Below the pieces are notes generated by a model, which was given only the letters and a program-made list of their open reading frames with translations, searched no databases and had not been told where the DNA came from. Position numbers and translations under genes: made by a program. From Kutzneria sp. 744 (GTDB lineage: Bacteria; Actinomycetota; Actinomycetes; Mycobacteriales; Pseudonocardiaceae), in NCBI RefSeq assembly GCF_000568255.1, contig NZ_KK037166.1, positions 11,013,761 through 11,064,894 of the forward strand: a stretch of DNA of 51,134 bases, written 5' to 3'. Positions 24,044 to 29,504 of this stretch are shown here, in pieces (position 1 is the stretch's first letter; every line of letters begins with the position of its first letter).

Positions 24044-24868
24044 TCAGTGCGAGGCACTCGCCAGCGCCGCCAGCTGGTCGATGGCGTCCTGGGCGGCCAG
24101 GCTCTCCGCCGTGCCGACCAGCAGCTGCTGCCCGGGTGCGTCCTTCACGTCGAAGGTCTGGTACGTGAGTTCCACTCGCCCCACCCGAGGATGCACAAAG
24201 ACCTTGTACGCCCGCATGAGCCCGGCAACGGTGTGGTCGGCCCACAGCTCACGGAACTCGGCCGACTCGGCCGACAGCTCGGCCACCAGCGCGGAGATCC
24301 CCGGATCGGACGGGAAGAGCCCGGCGTTGAGCCGCAAGGCGTGCACGGTGGCCCCGGCCACCAGCGGCCACTCGACGAACACGGCCCGGGCCGCCGAGTG
24401 TGTGAACAGGATCCGCGGCATGTTCCGCTCGCCGCCGAAGGGCGACAGCAGCGCCTCGGCGACCCGGTTGGCGGCCAGGACGTCGAAGGCCGGCCCCAGC
24501 ACGTAGGCGGCCGCCCGCGGGAAGGCGTCCAACAGCTGCACCAACGACGGATCCACCCGCGTCGGCGGCACACCCGGCACGCCCGGGTGAAGCCCGGCCA
24601 GCCGGTGCAGGTGATCACGGGCGTCCGGGCCCAGTTGCAGGGCCCGGGCCAACGCCGTCACGACCTGGGCGGAAGGATTCCGTTCGCGCCCTTGCTCCAA
24701 CCGTGTGTAGTAGTCGGCACTGACCCCGGACAGCACCGCCACCTCCTCGCGGCGCAAACCCGCGACCCGACGCGTGGTCGTGTCGCCGGGCAGACCCGCC
24801 TCCGAGGGCTCCAGCCGGGCGCGGCCGGCCCGCAGGAACTCACCCAGTTGGTTGTCGCGGCTCACCAT
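24044..24868 (-). CDS. MmyB-type helix-turn-helix transcriptional regulator
   Basis: 274 residues. Same architecture as the regulators at 406 and 5566: HTH with GLRREEVAVLSGVSADYYTR, then an MmyB-like sensor domain ending in a FDVKDAPGQQLLVGTAE block. The ATG at 24868 is preferred over one 6 bp upstream. It starts 13 bp after the DUF574 methyltransferase stop on the same strand, so it is probably transcribed with it, and possibly with the cyclodipeptide synthase genes further upstream; it is the nearest candidate regulator of that cluster. Confidence 0.9.
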   Translation of the reverse strand: MVSRDNQLGEFLRAGRARLEPSEAGLPGDTTTRRVAGLRREEVAVLSGVSADYYTRLEQGRERNPSAQVVTALARALQLGPDARDHLHRLAGLHPGVPGVPPTRVDPSLVQLLDAFPRAAAYVLGPAFDVLAANRVAEALLSPFGGERNMPRILFTHSAARAVFVEWPLVAGATVHALRLNAGLFPSDPGISALVAELSAESAEFRELWADHTVAGLMRAYKVFVHPRVGRVELTYQTFDVKDAPGQQLLVGTAESLAAQDAIDQLAALASASH

Positions 24869-24881
24869 GGGCAAATGCTAC

Positions 24882-25700
24882 TCAGTACAGCGGCTTGCGC
24901 CCGATCGCGCCGTAGGCGCAGCTGCGTTCGGGGTGCTCGTCCACGTCCTCCGGCGTCTCCGGCCGCCACTGCGGCACGTAGACCACCCCGGGCTCGATCA
25001 GCTCCAGCCCCTTGAACAGCCGCGTGAACTGGTCGCGGTCGCGGGCCGTGAAGGGGCTGTCGGTCTCGTCGTACAGGCGGATCACCTGCTCGCCCTGCTC
25101 CCCGGCTGAGTCCTGGGTGCCCTGGGAGATCACCACGTAGCTGTCGGCGGCCAGGGCGTTGCGATAGGCCGCCACGATGGCCTGCGCCTCGGCGTCGTCC
25201 TCGACGAAGTGCAGCACCGCCGACATCAGCACCGCCACCGGCTGGGACAGGTCCAGCATGTTCAGCACGACCTCGCTGCGCAGCACGTCCCGCGGCACCC
25301 GCAGGTCGGCCCGCAGCGCGGCGGCGTTCGCGTTCTTCTCCAGCATCAGCGCCGAGTGCGCGATGGCCACGGAGTCCCGGTCCACGTACACGACCCGCGC
25401 GTGCGGGGCGACCTCCTGCGCGATCTCGTGCACGTTGCCGGCGGTGGGAATGCCGGAGCCCAGGTCGAGGAACTGGGTGATGCCCTGGTCGAGCAGGTAG
25501 TGCACGGCCCGCCGCAGGAACCGGCGCGAGGTGCGCAGGATCACCGGCAGGTCCGGCATCGTCTCCTGGGCCCGGTGCGCGAACTCCCGGTCGATGGCCA
25601 GGTTGTGGTAGCCGCCGAGGAAATAGTCGTACACCCGGGCGGCGCTGGGCACTTCCGGATCCAGCCCCGTCGGCATCCACGCGGATTCGTGCACGAGCAT
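24882..25700 (-). CDS. DUF574 SAM-dependent methyltransferase
   Basis: 272 residues. Actinomycete-specific DUF574 (PF04672) family: PSAARVYDYFLGGYHNLAID, then FLDLGSGIPTAGNVHEIAQ as motif I, YVDRDSVAIAH as motif II, and LMSAVLHFVEDD. The fold is that of a class I methyltransferase; acceptors are mostly unknown, and members often occur near regulators or in specialised-metabolite regions. It starts 66 bp after the methyltransferase of the CDPS cluster on the same strand, so it might act in that pathway, but the gap and the ubiquity of the family make that uncertain. Confidence 0.9.
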   Translation of the reverse strand: MLVHESAWMPTGLDPEVPSAARVYDYFLGGYHNLAIDREFAHRAQETMPDLPVILRTSRRFLRRAVHYLLDQGITQFLDLGSGIPTAGNVHEIAQEVAPHARVVYVDRDSVAIAHSALMLEKNANAAALRADLRVPRDVLRSEVVLNMLDLSQPVAVLMSAVLHFVEDDAEAQAIVAAYRNALAADSYVVISQGTQDSAGEQGEQVIRLYDETDSPFTARDRDQFTRLFKGLELIEPGVVYVPQWRPETPEDVDEHPERSCAYGAIGRKPLY

Positions 25701-25766: not shown

Positions 25767-26498
25767 TCATGCGGTCGCGGTGACAACGAGGGTCGGCGGT
25801 CGGCGCAGATAATCACCGAAGTGGACCACATCGGCGGTAGGGGAGCAGACCGGATCCCACCACGTGACCTGCCGGAAGCCGGCCCCGAGCAGGGCCTGTT
25901 CCTGGCTCGCCCGTGACCAGTTGTGCGGGGTGACGTCGATCGTGCCGCCCAGGAACTCGCTGCGCAGCCGAATCGGATCACCGTCGGAAAGTTCAGCCGA
26001 AGGGGCTATCAAGTCGAATCCGTACCGCAGGTAGTAACCCGGCTCGCGGGCGAAACCGGGATTGATGGTCACCGTCACGAATCGCTTTCCCGGGCCGGCC
26101 AGCGCCGATCGGGCCGAGGCGCACATCGCGGCCAGGGCGTCGTAGGTGTCCGCGTACGGCAGCAGGTGCACGGCGAGCACCACGTCGAAGGCGCCGGCGA
26201 TCGGCTCCGACGCGTCCTGGAGCACGAAGCTCGCCCCGGTCGGGTCCTCGGCCTCGCGCCGCCAGGCGTGCTCGATCATGCCGGCGGCGCCGTCGATGCC
26301 GACCACCGGCCGCGCCCCGCGTTCGGCCAGCAGCCGGGTGTACGAGCCGGCGCCGCAGCCGAGATCCAGCGCCGCCAACCCGGTCACGTCGCCCAGCGCC
26401 GTCAGCACCGAATGCTGCTCCACGTCCCGCCGGTACGGCCACACGTCGAAGCTGCGCTCGTACAGGTAGGCCAACTCGTCGAACTGGCTTGTGGTCAC
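25767..26498 (-). CDS. Class I SAM methyltransferase of the cyclodipeptide cluster
   Basis: 243 residues from the GTG at 26498 (AGGAG 4 bp upstream). Motif I is ALDLGCGAGSYTRLLAE, motif II GIDGAAGMIEHA, motif IV FDVVLAVHLLPYA. The sequence style is of small-molecule N/O-methyltransferases. It starts 8 bp after the P450 stop and so is the third gene of the CDPS-P450-MT operon. Methyltransferases in known CDPS clusters methylate the diketopiperazine ring nitrogens, a side-chain oxygen, or an attached purine; which applies here cannot be read from sequence. Confidence 0.9.
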   Translation of the reverse strand: MTTSQFDELAYLYERSFDVWPYRRDVEQHSVLTALGDVTGLAALDLGCGAGSYTRLLAERGARPVVGIDGAAGMIEHAWRREAEDPTGASFVLQDASEPIAGAFDVVLAVHLLPYADTYDALAAMCASARSALAGPGKRFVTVTINPGFAREPGYYLRYGFDLIAPSAELSDGDPIRLRSEFLGGTIDVTPHNWSRASQEQALLGAGFRQVTWWDPVCSPTADVVHFGDYLRRPPTLVVTATA

Positions 26499-26506
26499 GG
26501 CACTCC

Positions 26507-27712
26507 TCACCAGGTCACCGGCAGCTGCATCGGGCGGGTGAACATGCGGTTCGGGTCCCACGGCAGCTCCCGCTCGCTGACCGCCAGGTCCAACGTCGGA
26601 AACCGTTGGAACAGCGCGGAAAACGCCTCCTGGAGCACGACACGGGCGAGCTGCGAGCCGAGGCAGTAGTGCGGCCCGGCGCCGAACGTGGCGGAGCCGT
26701 CGGTGGCCCGGTGGATGTTGAACCGCTCGGGGTTGCGGTAGTGCCGCGGGTCCCACGTGACCGCCTGCATCGGCACCACCACGGCGTCGCCCTGCCGGAT
26801 CATGGTGCCGTTCAGCTCCACGTCCTCGCGGGCGATGCGCGGGAAACCCAGGCCGCCGTTGTGGAAGTAGCGCAGCACCTCCTCGACCGCCTTGGGCCAC
26901 AACGAGGGGTCGGCCACGCACTCGACGAGTTGCCTGCGGTGCAACATGAGGATCATGGGGCCGGTGGTCAGCGGGGCCACCAGCGGGTCGAACGAGGTGA
27001 CGAAGATCAGGAACAGCGTGCCGAACATCTCCGACTCGCTGATCACGCCCTCGCGGCGGGCTTCGAGCAGCGTGTGCACGGGCGTGTCGGGCGCCGGATC
27101 CGCGCGGCGGGCGGCGATCAGCCGGGCGATGAACTGCTTGGCGGCGTCGGTCTCCTTCTCCACGGCCTCCGGCGTCGAGGACAGGTCCAGGCTCATCGGG
27201 TAGACCTGCCGGCACTCCGCCGCCAGCTCCGGCGGCACGCCCATCAGCTCGCCCATGGCGTCCAGCGGCAGCGGCGCCGAGTAGGCCTCCACCAGGTCGG
27301 CCGGGTTGGGGCCGGCCGACAGCTGATCCAGCAGCCGGTGGGCGTGGCGGGCGAACAGCGGCCGGTGGCGCTGCACCGCGCGGCGGGTGAACCAGCCGCT
27401 GAGCACCTGCCGCACCCGACCGTGCGCCGGCGGGTCGAGGTTGAAGATCGCGTCGTGCACCGAGGTGAGGTCCTCGCCGACCATGCGGGGCGAGCCGGGC
27501 TCGGCCAGGTTCCGGCTGAACCGGTTGTCGGCCAGCATCTGGGCCACGTCGTCCTTGCGCGTCAGCATCCAGGCCGTGACGCCGCTGGGCAGCCGGACCG
27601 GGCACACCGGTTTGGCGCGTTGGGCCCAGGCGGTCAGCGGGGGGAGCGCGCCGGTGTCACCGAGCGGAAACGGGTATTGCAGCGGGAGTTCCGGTTCGAT
27701 CGTGTCCGTCAC
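26507..27712 (-). CDS. Cytochrome P450 of the cyclodipeptide cluster
   Basis: 401 residues from the GTG at 27712, preceded by a near-ideal GGAGGAGG site, which decides the start. Bacterial class I P450: K-helix Glu278-x2-Arg281, heme loop FGAGPHYCLG with the proximal ligand Cys350. The I-helix (LFLIFVTSFDPLVAPLTT, 233-250) is unusual: the canonical AGx(D/E)T reads TSFDP, keeping Asp242 but with Pro243 in place of the Thr that normally protonates the iron-oxygen intermediate. It needs external ferredoxin and reductase, not present here. The start lies inside the CDPS gene (56-bp overlap), so translation is coupled. It likely tailors the cyclodipeptide: in known clusters, P450s hydroxylate, dimerise, or couple nucleobases to diketopiperazines. 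Confidence 0.93.
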   Translation of the reverse strand: MTDTIEPELPLQYPFPLGDTGALPPLTAWAQRAKPVCPVRLPSGVTAWMLTRKDDVAQMLADNRFSRNLAEPGSPRMVGEDLTSVHDAIFNLDPPAHGRVRQVLSGWFTRRAVQRHRPLFARHAHRLLDQLSAGPNPADLVEAYSAPLPLDAMGELMGVPPELAAECRQVYPMSLDLSSTPEAVEKETDAAKQFIARLIAARRADPAPDTPVHTLLEARREGVISESEMFGTLFLIFVTSFDPLVAPLTTGPMILMLHRRQLVECVADPSLWPKAVEEVLRYFHNGGLGFPRIAREDVELNGTMIRQGDAVVVPMQAVTWDPRHYRNPERFNIHRATDGSATFGAGPHYCLGSQLARVVLQEAFSALFQRFPTLDLAVSERELPWDPNRMFTRPMQLPVTW

Positions 27713-28373
27713 GATTTTCCTCCTCCTGGCTGACGATCGCCCACGTCTGGCCGGGCGCCGCGGTGAGAATGGAGCCGCTGTCCGCGATCGCCGCCACCAG
27801 TGGAGTGGCACGGTGGTACACGAAAACGCTCCTGTCGGCGCCGAAGACGTCCGGGCCGTCCGTGAGCAGCGGAATTTCAGCAATGACGTAGCGAACCGCG
27901 ATGTCGATATCGCACTGTGTGACCGGTTGGCCGTCCGCCGCGTTGCCGACCACCTCGGCCGTCATCTCGCGGCAGGCCCGTCGAATGCGCGGATCGGTCA
28001 GATATGCCTTGCGTGAGCGGATCAGCGAAGCCCGGTACGCGGCGTCGGCGTGCAGCCGGGTCCAGCTCGTCACGTGCCGCGACGGATCGGGGACGCCCAG
28101 GTCGGCCAGGGCTCGCACGGCCGGATTGCGCAGCTGGCGGTAGGCCCGGCGGGCCCGGTGCACCGCCTGTGCCGGCGGGTGGCCGGCCGCCACCAGCGTG
28201 TACGCCGCCTCGAATCCGGGAATGACCACGTCGATGGATCTGAATCGGGGCTGCAGCCAGAAAATCAGGTTCCGGATGTATTCCGGCTTGTATCGTCCGT
28301 TCTGCGGACTCAGCCCGACCAGAACGTGGTCGCGATGCCTGGCTGTCTCTGCTAACCAGTCGAGAGTGAACAC
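27657..28373 (-). CDS. Cyclodipeptide synthase (NYH subfamily)
   Basis: 238 residues from the GTG at 28373, 7 bp after GGGAGGGG; an upstream ATG (28403) has no ribosome-binding site, and the GTG gives nearly the length of AlbC (239). CDPSs make diketopiperazines from two aminoacyl-tRNAs by a ping-pong mechanism. The catalytic set is complete: nucleophile Ser22 in GLSPQN with Asn25 three residues later, Tyr162-x3-Glu166 in RYVIAEIP, and Tyr186-His187 in FVYHR. These spacings match AlbC (Ser37, Asn40, Tyr178, Glu182, Tyr202, His203). Asn25/Tyr186/His187 place it in the NYH subfamily. The Arg-rich helix (VHRARRAYRQLR) fits tRNA binding. The amino acids used cannot be predicted by eye. Confidence 0.93.
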   Translation of the reverse strand: MFTLDWLAETARHRDHVLVGLSPQNGRYKPEYIRNLIFWLQPRFRSIDVVIPGFEAAYTLVAAGHPPAQAVHRARRAYRQLRNPAVRALADLGVPDPSRHVTSWTRLHADAAYRASLIRSRKAYLTDPRIRRACREMTAEVVGNAADGQPVTQCDIDIAVRYVIAEIPLLTDGPDVFGADRSVFVYHRATPLVAAIADSGSILTAAPGQTWAIVSQEEENRDGHDRTGTPAAIPVSAR

Positions 28374-28711
28374 GATGGAGCCCCTCCCTCGCCCGTGCGA
28401 CATGGTGTCTACGGATCGTTCGAGACGGACAACTGCGCATTTGCATAGCTACATCTGCAAATTTCGGCACAAGTCTAGGTCGGGTTCACCGGTGGCGGAC
28501 AGAGCTAGTTCGTGTGAAAGAGCAATCACGCGCCGCACTTGACCATCACTCGCCCGAGTTAACCATCCCTCGGGTGGGTGACCCCCCGTCCCGGCCCCGC
28601 TGAGACGCCCGGTGTGCCTGCGGCCCTCCCGTGCGGGCCTGCCACCTGGTCATACACCGGATTCTCGCCACTATCGGGTGACTTTCGCGCCGTGCACAGA
28701 CGATCAACAGC
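28374..28711. other. Promoter region of the cyclodipeptide operon, no gene seen
   Basis: About 340 bp without a credible gene. The part at 28430-28480 is clearly poorer in G+C than the surroundings and holds ATTTGCA (28439-28445) and TGCAAAT (28456-28462), an inverted repeat with a 10-base spacer, a candidate operator or promoter element. Further upstream, CCCGAG and CTCGGG (about 28553-28575) form a second small inverted repeat. No riboswitch family was recognised. Confidence 0.5.
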
Positions 28712-28785: not shown

Positions 28786-29307
28786 TCAACTCTGCGTGGA
28801 CTCGGCCCGCCGGGGCAGCTTCCAGCCCGGGCGCACGAAGTGGCAGGTGTAGCCGTTCGGGTAGCGCAGCAGGTAGTCCTGGTGCTCCGGCTCGGCCTCC
28901 CAGAAGTCGCCCGCCGGCTCGACCTCGGTGACGACCTTGCCCGGCCACAGGCCCGAGGCGTCGACGTCGGCGATGGTGTCCTCGGCGACGCGCTTCTGCT
29001 CGTCGCTGGTGTAGTAGATCGCCGACCGGTAGCTCAGCCCGATGTCGTTGCCCTGCCGGTTCTTCGTGCTCGGGTCGTGCACCTGGAAGAAGAACTCCAG
29101 CAGGTCCCGATAGCTGGTCGCGCTCGGGTCGAAGACGATCTCCACGGCCTCGGCGTGGGTGCCGTGGTTGCGGTAGGTGGCGTTGGGCGTGTCGCCGCCG
29201 GAGTAGCCGACCCGGGTGGACAGCACGCCGGGCTGCCGCCGGATCAGGTCCTGCATGCCCCAGAAGCAGCCACCGGCCAGCACCGCGGTCTCGGTCGTGT
29301 TGCTCAT
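28786..29307 (-). CDS. msrA: Peptide-methionine (S)-S-oxide reductase MsrA
   Basis: 173 residues. The active-site GGCFWG with nucleophilic Cys14 is diagnostic, followed by [27 protein letters not shown] and YYTSDEQ. It reduces methionine-S-sulfoxide in proteins, recycled by thioredoxin. The ATG at 29307 is preceded by AGAGGGAG; in-frame codons upstream are not family-like. A strong terminator follows the gene. Confidence 0.95.
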
Positions 29308-29504
29308 CGCTCCCTCTCTGCTCTTTCCCCCCGGCCCGTACAACGCGGGCCCGGCCGGTTTTGGTCCCGGCTGTGACATGCGTCCGGTCCAGCGTAAGCA
29401 GTGCGTAAGAGGTCTCAGGCGCCCTTGTCGAAGAAGTCGGCCAGAAGAGCCGCTCGGGCTTGGCTCCCAGGTGTTGCCTCACCCGCCGGGTGACCCCGGC
29501 CACG

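What the first reader, a model, noticed from the sequence alone, without database searches (positions are those of the whole stretch)
25767..28373. Compact cyclodipeptide synthase - P450 - methyltransferase operon
An NYH-type CDPS with all six catalytic residues at AlbC spacing is followed by a P450 whose start lies inside the CDPS gene and a methyltransferase 8 bp further on. There is no cyclodipeptide oxidase. CDPS-P450 pairs are known to make dimeric, nucleobase-linked or oxidised diketopiperazines, so a new member in this layout is a direct lead to an unknown product. Same-strand genes continue to a DUF574 methyltransferase and an MmyB regulator, which may be part of the cluster.
Basis: partly seen in the sequence, partly recalled or inferred. 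Interest (0 to 1): 0.82.

Follow-up and report, generated by a model that had tools for sequence, protein, structure and literature searches.

The report
Uncharacterised cyclic-dipeptide pathway in Kutzneria
Three overlapping genes in a soil bacterium probably build a small ring from two amino acids, then oxidise and methylate it; the same gene trio sits in distant bacteria and on plasmids, and its oxidising enzyme forms a branch for which no product was found, so it is a good but not extraordinary lead to a new natural product.

Summary
In detail: an intact NYH-type cyclodipeptide synthase (CDPS), a P450 starting 56 bp inside it and a methyltransferase 8 bp further on, in a Kutzneria genome. 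Five of seven genus genomes have these genes, under purifying selection, with a DUF574 methyltransferase 45-66 bp downstream in all five; the MmyB regulator is found in three.

The expectation of a dimer or nucleobase adduct is not supported. The P450 belongs to its own CDPS-linked clade (support 100/100), at most about 30% identical to P450s beside Tyr/Trp-type CDPSs and 25% to the CypX side. The CDPS P1 pocket (LGVPWLLF) is of the prolyl/leucyl type; its clade holds pocket matches to CDPSs shown to make cyclo(Pro-Arg) and cyclo(Pro-Leu). The methyltransferase resembles ring-nitrogen N-methyltransferases.

The trio recurs in Streptomyces, on plasmids and in Lysobacter. Unusually, the P450 I-helix mostly has acid-Pro instead of acid-Thr, as the CypX side does. 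Best reading: an uncharacterised pathway family making N-methylated, ring-oxidised aliphatic or prolyl diketopiperazines. The chemistry is inferred only.

The parts
27657..28373 (-). cyclodipeptide synthase, NYH type (GTG start; the longer ORF starts at ATG 28403)
   Evidence: PF16715, TIGR04539; catalytic residues and pockets; start conservation
26507..27712 (-). cytochrome P450 of a separate CDPS-associated lineage; I-helix SFDP, haem loop FGAGPHYCLG
   Evidence: PF00067; trees; I-helix table
25767..26498 (-). class I SAM methyltransferase, ToxA/XrdM-like fold, relative of the methyltransferase beside the A. pretiosum CDPS
   Evidence: PF13649/PF08241
24882..25700 (-). DUF574 / Methyltransf_19 SAM methyltransferase, likely fourth gene of the operon in Kutzneria
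   Evidence: PF04672 293 bits; 45-66 bp behind the methyltransferase in 5 of 5 genomes (starts by gene caller or comparison); no match in the Streptomyces and Lysobacter trio loci tested
24044..24874 (-). MmyB-like regulator, optional neighbour
   Evidence: PF17765 + HTH; in 3 of 5 genomes
28440..28530 (-). conserved upstream block with the element CGAAATTTGCAGATGTAGCTATGCA (28442-28466); likely promoter/operator
   Evidence: aligned in 5 Kutzneria genomes; one match in the window, 0 expected; one match of a related pattern in the genome
28717..28740 (-). terminator-like hairpin between msrA (28786-29379) and the operon
   Evidence: 1 found against 1.6 expected in shuffles, so its position rather than the count is the argument

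Best explanation
A small biosynthetic operon. The CDPS joins two aminoacyl-tRNAs into a cyclic dipeptide with leucine or proline as the first residue; the P450 then oxidises the diketopiperazine itself (N-oxidation, ring dehydrogenation or hydroxylation beside the ring) rather than coupling aromatic side chains; the methyltransferase methylates a ring nitrogen. It is one member of a CDPS-P450-methyltransferase family found in Streptomyces, Kutzneria and Lysobacter, partly on plasmids. Shown by computation: the genes, intact active-site motifs, conservation, the P450 lineage and the recurring trio. Inferred: first amino acid, type of oxidation, site of methylation, order of steps. Unknown: the second amino acid and the role of DUF574.
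For: P1 pocket LGVPWLLF in 4 of 5 Kutzneria genomes and LGIPWLFF in the fifth, P2 MEVNRTP in 5 of 5. The sister CDPS in the tree (L127) has P1 LGFPWLVF, the table row that I assign to CDPS 77 (leucyl products); the clade holds the exact P1+P2 motifs of the rows that I assign to CDPS 83 (cyclo(Pro-Arg)) and CDPS 82 (cyclo(Pro-Leu)). P450 lineage: 17 rows plus 2 haemless, 100/100; in the 392-genome search 12 of 13 P450 hits at E<=1e-85 sit beside a CDPS and 11 of 13 beside this methyltransferase. I-helix acid 17/17, Thr replaced by Pro 14, Ala 2, Ser 1; the CypX side is Glu-Pro 12/12; the Tyr/Trp side has no acid there and Ser in 26/27; 0 of 29 other P450s examined in this genome have Pro. Methyltransferase: best folds ToxA and XrdM; 39% identical to the methyltransferase beside the A. 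pretiosum CDPS.
Against: No product of any P450 in this lineage was found. Acid-Pro in the I-helix does not prove CypX-like chemistry, 3 of 17 members lack it, and the lineage is not clearly related to CypX (the free tree separates them; AU p 0.109 does not reject one clade). P1 cannot separate Leu from Pro (6 of 8 positions agree with each of two table rows), and P2 matches no published row. A prolyl residue has no free N-H, so pyrazine formation as in pulcherriminic acid would be impossible on that side. The best structural matches of the P450 include bond-forming enzymes besides hydroxylases (TleB, HinD, and SgvP, titled a putative thioether synthase), and the model is poor (pLDDT 71). ToxA's Tyr7 is Phe in 17 of 17 methyltransferases of this family but Tyr in ToxA and in 3 of 3 Amir_4628-type rows, so the acceptor may differ. 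BcmD, the bicyclomycin P450 of another aliphatic CDPS pathway, was not in any tree here.
Confidence: 0.6

Rival explanations
1. One reading: the P450 couples the cyclodipeptide to itself or to a nucleobase, and the methyltransferase methylates the nucleobase, as GutE does in guanitrypmycin pathways.
For: CDPS-linked P450s do this (PMC7954767, parts 1-2 of 4 read); the methyltransferase is closest in fold to ToxA, whose ligand in the structures is toxoflavin, a purine-like bicycle (the likeness is recalled); some of the closest P450 structures are bond-forming enzymes.
Against: The P450 is at most 30.5% identical to that lineage over its length and in another clade; its I-helix acid is kept, which that side lacks; the CDPS pocket is not a Trp/Tyr type.
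Confidence: 0.12
2. The P450 simply hydroxylates an aliphatic side chain or alpha carbon, as BcmD does, and the methyltransferase N- or O-methylates; nothing like CypX.
For: The closest solved P450s include macrolide-type enzymes such as OleP, PikC and P450revI; aliphatic substrate expected.
Against: Loss of the I-helix Thr in 17 of 17 members, against Thr in 24 of 29 other P450s examined in this genome; some hydroxylases also lack it (P450eryF, recalled), so this is weak.
Confidence: 0.25
3. The operon is a decaying or inactive remnant.
For: CDPS 80 of S. natalensis, the species of L047, was inactive in E. coli (Table 1 of PMC5816076); two relatives have a haemless P450, one has split frames (L144).
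Against: All motifs looked for are intact; pN/pS 0.24-0.48 in three genes across five genomes; conserved upstream element.
Confidence: 0.03

Closest known systems
Lysobacter antibioticus CDPS 83 locus (CDPS makes cyclo(Pro-Arg) in E. coli, Gondry et al. 2018, PMC5816076)
   Same: Same three genes in the same order in L. antibioticus 13-6 (L059): CDPS 36-38%, P450 50%, methyltransferase 42-45%; P1 VGLPWFFF and P2 ATAGRIS exactly as in the table row for Pro/Arg.
   Different: Different P1 and P2 letters (LGVPWLLF, MEVNRTP here); residue 203 is Pro in L059, His here; no characterisation of its P450 or methyltransferase was found. That L059 is the gene of CDPS 83 rests on species and motifs.
Streptomyces tsukubensis plasmid pST1 trio (WP_077974352, WP_077974355, WP_077974357)
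   Same: CDPS, P450 and a class I methyltransferase annotated in the same order; P450 59%.
   Different: P1 LGFPWLVF, P2 TEAGRMA, CDPS 49%; on an 18.8-kb linear plasmid with transposition genes.
YvmC-CypX, pulcherriminic acid
   Same: CDPS + P450; acid-Pro I-helix (12 of 12 on that side); P0001's best solved match is YvmC.
   Different: P450 about 23-25% identical to the Bacillus rows, other clade, far below the TIGR04538 cut-off (82.6 against 500); P1 LGLAFFFL.
CYP121 / GutD / NasB-type CDPS-P450 pathways
   Same: CDPS with P450.
   Different: P450s beside Tyr/Trp-pocket CDPSs are at most 30.5% identical over their length; Ser and no acid in the I-helix.
Amir_4628-type diketopiperazine N-methyltransferases (Actinosynnema)
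   Same: 39% identical to the methyltransferase beside the A. pretiosum CDPS (L108).
   Different: Separate group in the tree (100/100), Phe instead of Tyr at the ToxA Tyr7 position. That L108 is the Amir_4628 orthologue is inferred from genus and layout.

Membership tests
Cyclodipeptide synthases, NYH subfamily | PF16715/TIGR04539 above cut-off; Ser37, Tyr178, Glu182, Tyr202; Asn40-Tyr202-His203 | tested here: met
Cyclodipeptide synthases, NYH subfamily | makes cyclodipeptides from aminoacyl-tRNAs | not testable with these tools
   needs expression
TIGR04538 CypX-type P450 | NCBIfam score above the cut-off of 500 | tested here: not met
   82.6 bits; separate clade, though one clade of both is not rejected (AU p 0.109)
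CYP121/GutD/NasB-side P450s | clusters with P450s beside cYY/cWX-type CDPSs | tested here: not met
   no sequence with a published name was in the set, the side is labelled by the CDPS pocket motifs
BcmD (bicyclomycin P450) | sequence lineage of BcmD; five 2-oxoglutarate oxygenase genes beside it | not tested
   no BcmD sequence was in the set; no oxygenase family among the ten neighbours scanned
Guanitrypmycin-type cluster with methyltransferase | CDPS + two cyclodipeptide oxidase genes + P450 + methyltransferase | tested here: not met
   no oxidase among the neighbours scanned
Diketopiperazine ring N-methyltransferases | groups with Amir_4628-type enzymes; methylates ring N | tested here: inconclusive
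   39% identity, separate group, Tyr7 position changed; activity not testable
Predictable CDPS specificity groups of Gondry 2018 | P1 and P2 motif of a defined group | tested here: inconclusive
   P1 xGxPWxxF like prolyl/leucyl CDPSs, P2 matches no row of Table 2

The most novel reading that the evidence does not exclude
Acid-Pro P450s were recruited to CDPS pathways twice (CypX and this lineage) to oxidise the nitrogen or ring of aliphatic diketopiperazines, and this trio makes a mobile class of N-methylated, N-oxidised or unsaturated diketopiperazines shared by actinobacteria and Lysobacter. In two Streptomyces the lineage-A P450 has lost its haem ligand beside a further P450 (CypX-type in one), as if one had taken over the other's reaction.
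Probability: 0.3. Interest if true: 0.72.

Novelty: new variant of a known kind. Interest (0 to 1): 0.5.

Why it matters
CDPS-linked P450s are valued for unusual chemistry, and those in the review parts read act on aromatic cyclodipeptides, on cyclo(Leu-Leu) or on the bicyclomycin core. This lineage is nearly always tied to one kind of methyltransferase and to CDPSs with aliphatic or prolyl pockets, has an unusual oxygen-activation site, and crosses phyla and replicons. Three short genes, and a plasmid copy in S. tsukubensis, make the test easy.

Tried and rejected
Rejected: product class by analogy with Trp/Tyr CDPS-P450 pairs (another lineage). Rejected: CypX orthology. Rejected: L050 as the guanitrypmycin cluster of S. 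varsoviensis; it is another CDPS (P1 and P2 of the Pro/Leu row) without a P450 match to the query. No empty site could be shown: in G006 the downstream gene has only a 36% relative elsewhere, in G005 none. No promoter matching the sigma-70 consensus. Literature: ten searches in an open-licence library listed nothing recognisable on this trio's product; most subscription papers are not held.

The pocket numbering: the paper's text calls the fourth P1 residue position 119; I adopted the order 33, 35, 65, 67, 119, 185, 186, 200 (P2: 152, 155, 156, 159, 204, 206, 207) because it returns published P1+P2 rows letter for letter for L059 and L050 (the P2 of L050 was read off the residues printed) and for L174, L177, L194 and L165. 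The rows of Table 2 carry no CDPS numbers in the held text; rows were assigned to CDPS 77, 82, 83 and 98 by the amino acids named.

Rows dropped or chosen: in the P450 tree L046 (same locus as L146), L043 and L044 (Kutzneria near-copies, so 3 of 5 Kutzneria rows kept) and L176 (127-residue match) were dropped; the tree used 40 chosen rows and the CDPS tree 43; 60 of the CDPS places listed, itself a cut list, were fetched. The 155 loci are not an even sample: 80 came by CDPS similarity and 13 by P450 similarity. I-helix background: 29 ORFs from 30 loci of 63 P450 matches, a few aligned poorly (L231, L242, L245).
Full report
What is there. The window lies at 11.01-11.06 Mb of an 11.65-Mb single-contig genome. 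Its genus is Kutzneria: places in two sister genomes (G004, G001) have the contig lengths of Kutzneria sp. CA-103260 and K. buriramensis. On the minus strand lie a CDPS (27657-28373), a P450 (26507-27712), a class I methyltransferase (25767-26498), a DUF574 methyltransferase (24882-25700) and an MmyB-like regulator (24044-24874). Ribosome sites precede the first three genes.

Conservation and extent. A search of the seven genus genomes found orthologues of the CDPS in five (74-100% identity; a sixth has only a 33% relative). In all five, P450, methyltransferase and DUF574 follow in the same order, with msrA upstream and an ATP-grasp acyl-CoA synthetase downstream; in G001 four other ORFs lie between msrA and the CDPS. 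DUF574 follows the methyltransferase by 45-66 bp in all five (start codons by gene caller or comparison). MmyB is present in three. pN/pS of the window against the other four is 0.24-0.48 for the three genes. A block upstream of the CDPS is strongly conserved in the five genomes; its core element occurs once in the window and a related pattern once in the genome. In the family search (390 genomes, E<=1e-20) every listed CDPS outside this group was at most 37% identical.

The CDPS. The P1/P2 positions used here reproduce published motifs exactly for two loci whose species are in the table: S. varsoviensis (Pro/Leu row, CDPS 82, cyclo(Pro-Leu)) and L. antibioticus (Pro/Arg row, CDPS 83, cyclo(Pro-Arg)) (Gondry et al. 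2018, PMC5816076; sections 10 and 11 and passages read). The held text prints no CDPS numbers in the motif table, so the row assignments are mine. CDPS 83 is listed there as NYH, while L059 has Pro at 203; this mismatch is unexplained. The Kutzneria P1 is LGVPWLLF (LGIPWLFF in K. buriramensis) and P2 MEVNRTP. Six of eight P1 letters agree with LGFPWLVF (leucyl, CDPS 77) and six with LGLPWLFF (Pro/Met, CDPS 98), so Leu or Pro is expected first; P2 predicts nothing. In the CDPS tree the trio CDPSs, a Burkholderia one and two of the S. varsoviensis type stand apart from the other rows (100/97), and L127 is sister to Kutzneria (97/93).

The P450. Of 59 CDPS-P450 pairs in 155 loci (some loci are duplicates), the P450s fall into a lineage with the window (40.7-88% identity; two haemless ones, added apart, 34-36%), a CypX side (20-25%) and a side whose CDPSs bear Tyr or Trp pockets of the published kind (27-30.5%; one 127-residue match at 38%). 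The window lineage, haemless rows included, is one clade at 100/100 (again 100/100 for ten rows). With own-genome P450s added, CypX falls among these and not with the window lineage, but one clade of both is not rejected (AU p 0.109). The I-helix acid is kept in 17 of 17; the following Thr is Pro in 14, Ala in 2, Ser in 1. CypX-side rows are Glu-Pro in 12 of 12; the Tyr/Trp side has no acid and Ser in 26 of 27. Among 29 other P450s examined in this genome none has Pro and 24 have Thr. These rows include near-copies (five near-identical Streptomyces rows, three Kutzneria, eight Bacillus/Paenibacillus), so the counts are not independent events. The best structural matches of a poor model are macrolide-type P450s such as OleP, but also TleB, HinD and SgvP, which are not plain hydroxylases (TleB and HinD chemistry recalled). 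BcmD, the P450 of the aliphatic bicyclomycin pathway, was not compared.

The recurring trio. A search with the P450 alone at E<=1e-85 hit 12 of 392 genomes of a genus that holds named Streptomyces (13 places); 12 of 13 lie beside a CDPS and 11 of 13 beside this methyltransferase, in the orders CDPS-P450-MT or MT-CDPS-P450. A class-wide sample at E<=1e-80 gave 3 of 394, own genome included. Two of 198 genomes of the Lysobacter family have the P450 at E<=1e-80, both with CDPS and methyltransferase. Of nine plasmid records with a match at E<=1e-50 I opened six: S. tsukubensis, S. microflavus, S. anulatus and NBC_00342 carry CDPS, P450 and an annotated SAM methyltransferase side by side (the methyltransferases were judged by annotation and place only); S. 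subrutilus has a methyltransferase, an IS3 element and the P450 but no CDPS annotated; a Kitasatospora record at 35% has no CDPS. The two Burkholderia glumae records (33%) were not opened.

The methyltransferase. In a search of the same 155 loci (E<=1e-12) this family matches only trio loci and three loci of the Amir_4628 type. Amir_4628 methylates the ring nitrogens of cyclo(Trp-Trp) (review PMC4159871, passages). The predicted fold (pLDDT 88) is closest to ToxA and XrdM; that XrdM methylates a ring amide is recalled. So a ring-nitrogen acceptor is the best guess, with the caveat that ToxA's Tyr7 (placed by the printed Y7F mutant against the wild type) is Phe in all 17 trio methyltransferases aligned.

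How it most likely works. CDPS: two aminoacyl-tRNAs to cyclo(Leu/Pro-X). P450: oxidation of the diketopiperazine ring or beside it. Methyltransferase: N-methylation. Order unknown; no redox partner was seen among the neighbours scanned. The CypX analogy rests on the I-helix and on two Streptomyces (L045, L049) in which a lineage-A P450 without haem Cys stands beside a further P450 (CypX-type in L049; in L045 a 320-residue P450 ORF).

What is known. Harken and Li 2021 (PMC7954767, parts 1-2 of 4) list hydroxylation, aromatisation, C-C and C-N coupling and nucleobase transfer; the P450 clusters with a methyltransferase in those parts also have cyclodipeptide oxidases. Mann and Li 2026 (PMC13122648, part 1 of 3) treats a guanitrypmycin CDPS-P450 pair. 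Skinnider 2018 (PMC5767969, passages) counts Amir_4628 in 17 clusters. The passages seen of PMC2922099, PMC11610984, PMC9686873, PMC13062777, PMC10232511 and PMC4210621 held nothing on this trio; the K. chonburiensis paper lists a CDPS cluster type without detail.

Noticed in passing
L045:6651-7793 and L049:6717-7859: Lineage-A P450 homologues beside CDPSs in two Streptomyces have lost the haem-ligand loop (no Cys) yet stay open, with pN/pS 0.31 between the two (one pair), followed by a second P450 gene (CypX-type in L049).
   Followed up: partly
G000:C1:1009447-1010103 (L001, L015): Second CDPS in the same genome, beside a thioredoxin gene and an ORF that reads as a cytosine/purine permease joined to an M1-peptidase-like part; the same neighbours in another Kutzneria (L017).
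   Followed up: partly
L111:6001-7946 and L116:6001-7934: CDPS plus a CypX-side P450 in Bartonella raoultii and Marinomonas ostreistagni, besides the Bacillus and Paenibacillus ones.
   Followed up: no
L059:8904-10100 and L047:9040-10359: An Acyl_transf_3 gene lies near the CDPS-P450 genes in both Lysobacter antibioticus and Streptomyces natalensis.
   Followed up: no
28442-28466: Element CGAAATTTGCAGATGTAGCTATGCA with TTTGCA / TGCAAA half-sites (the second complete only in the window's own sequence), conserved upstream of the CDPS in five Kutzneria genomes and found once in this genome; regulator unknown.
   Followed up: partly
L144: A Streptomyces-genus trio in which the CDPS end and the methyltransferase are split over frames; decay or sequencing error.
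   Followed up: no
L220:577-4730: S. subrutilus plasmid: an IS3 transposase gene stands between a methyltransferase and the P450, and no CDPS is annotated.
   Followed up: no
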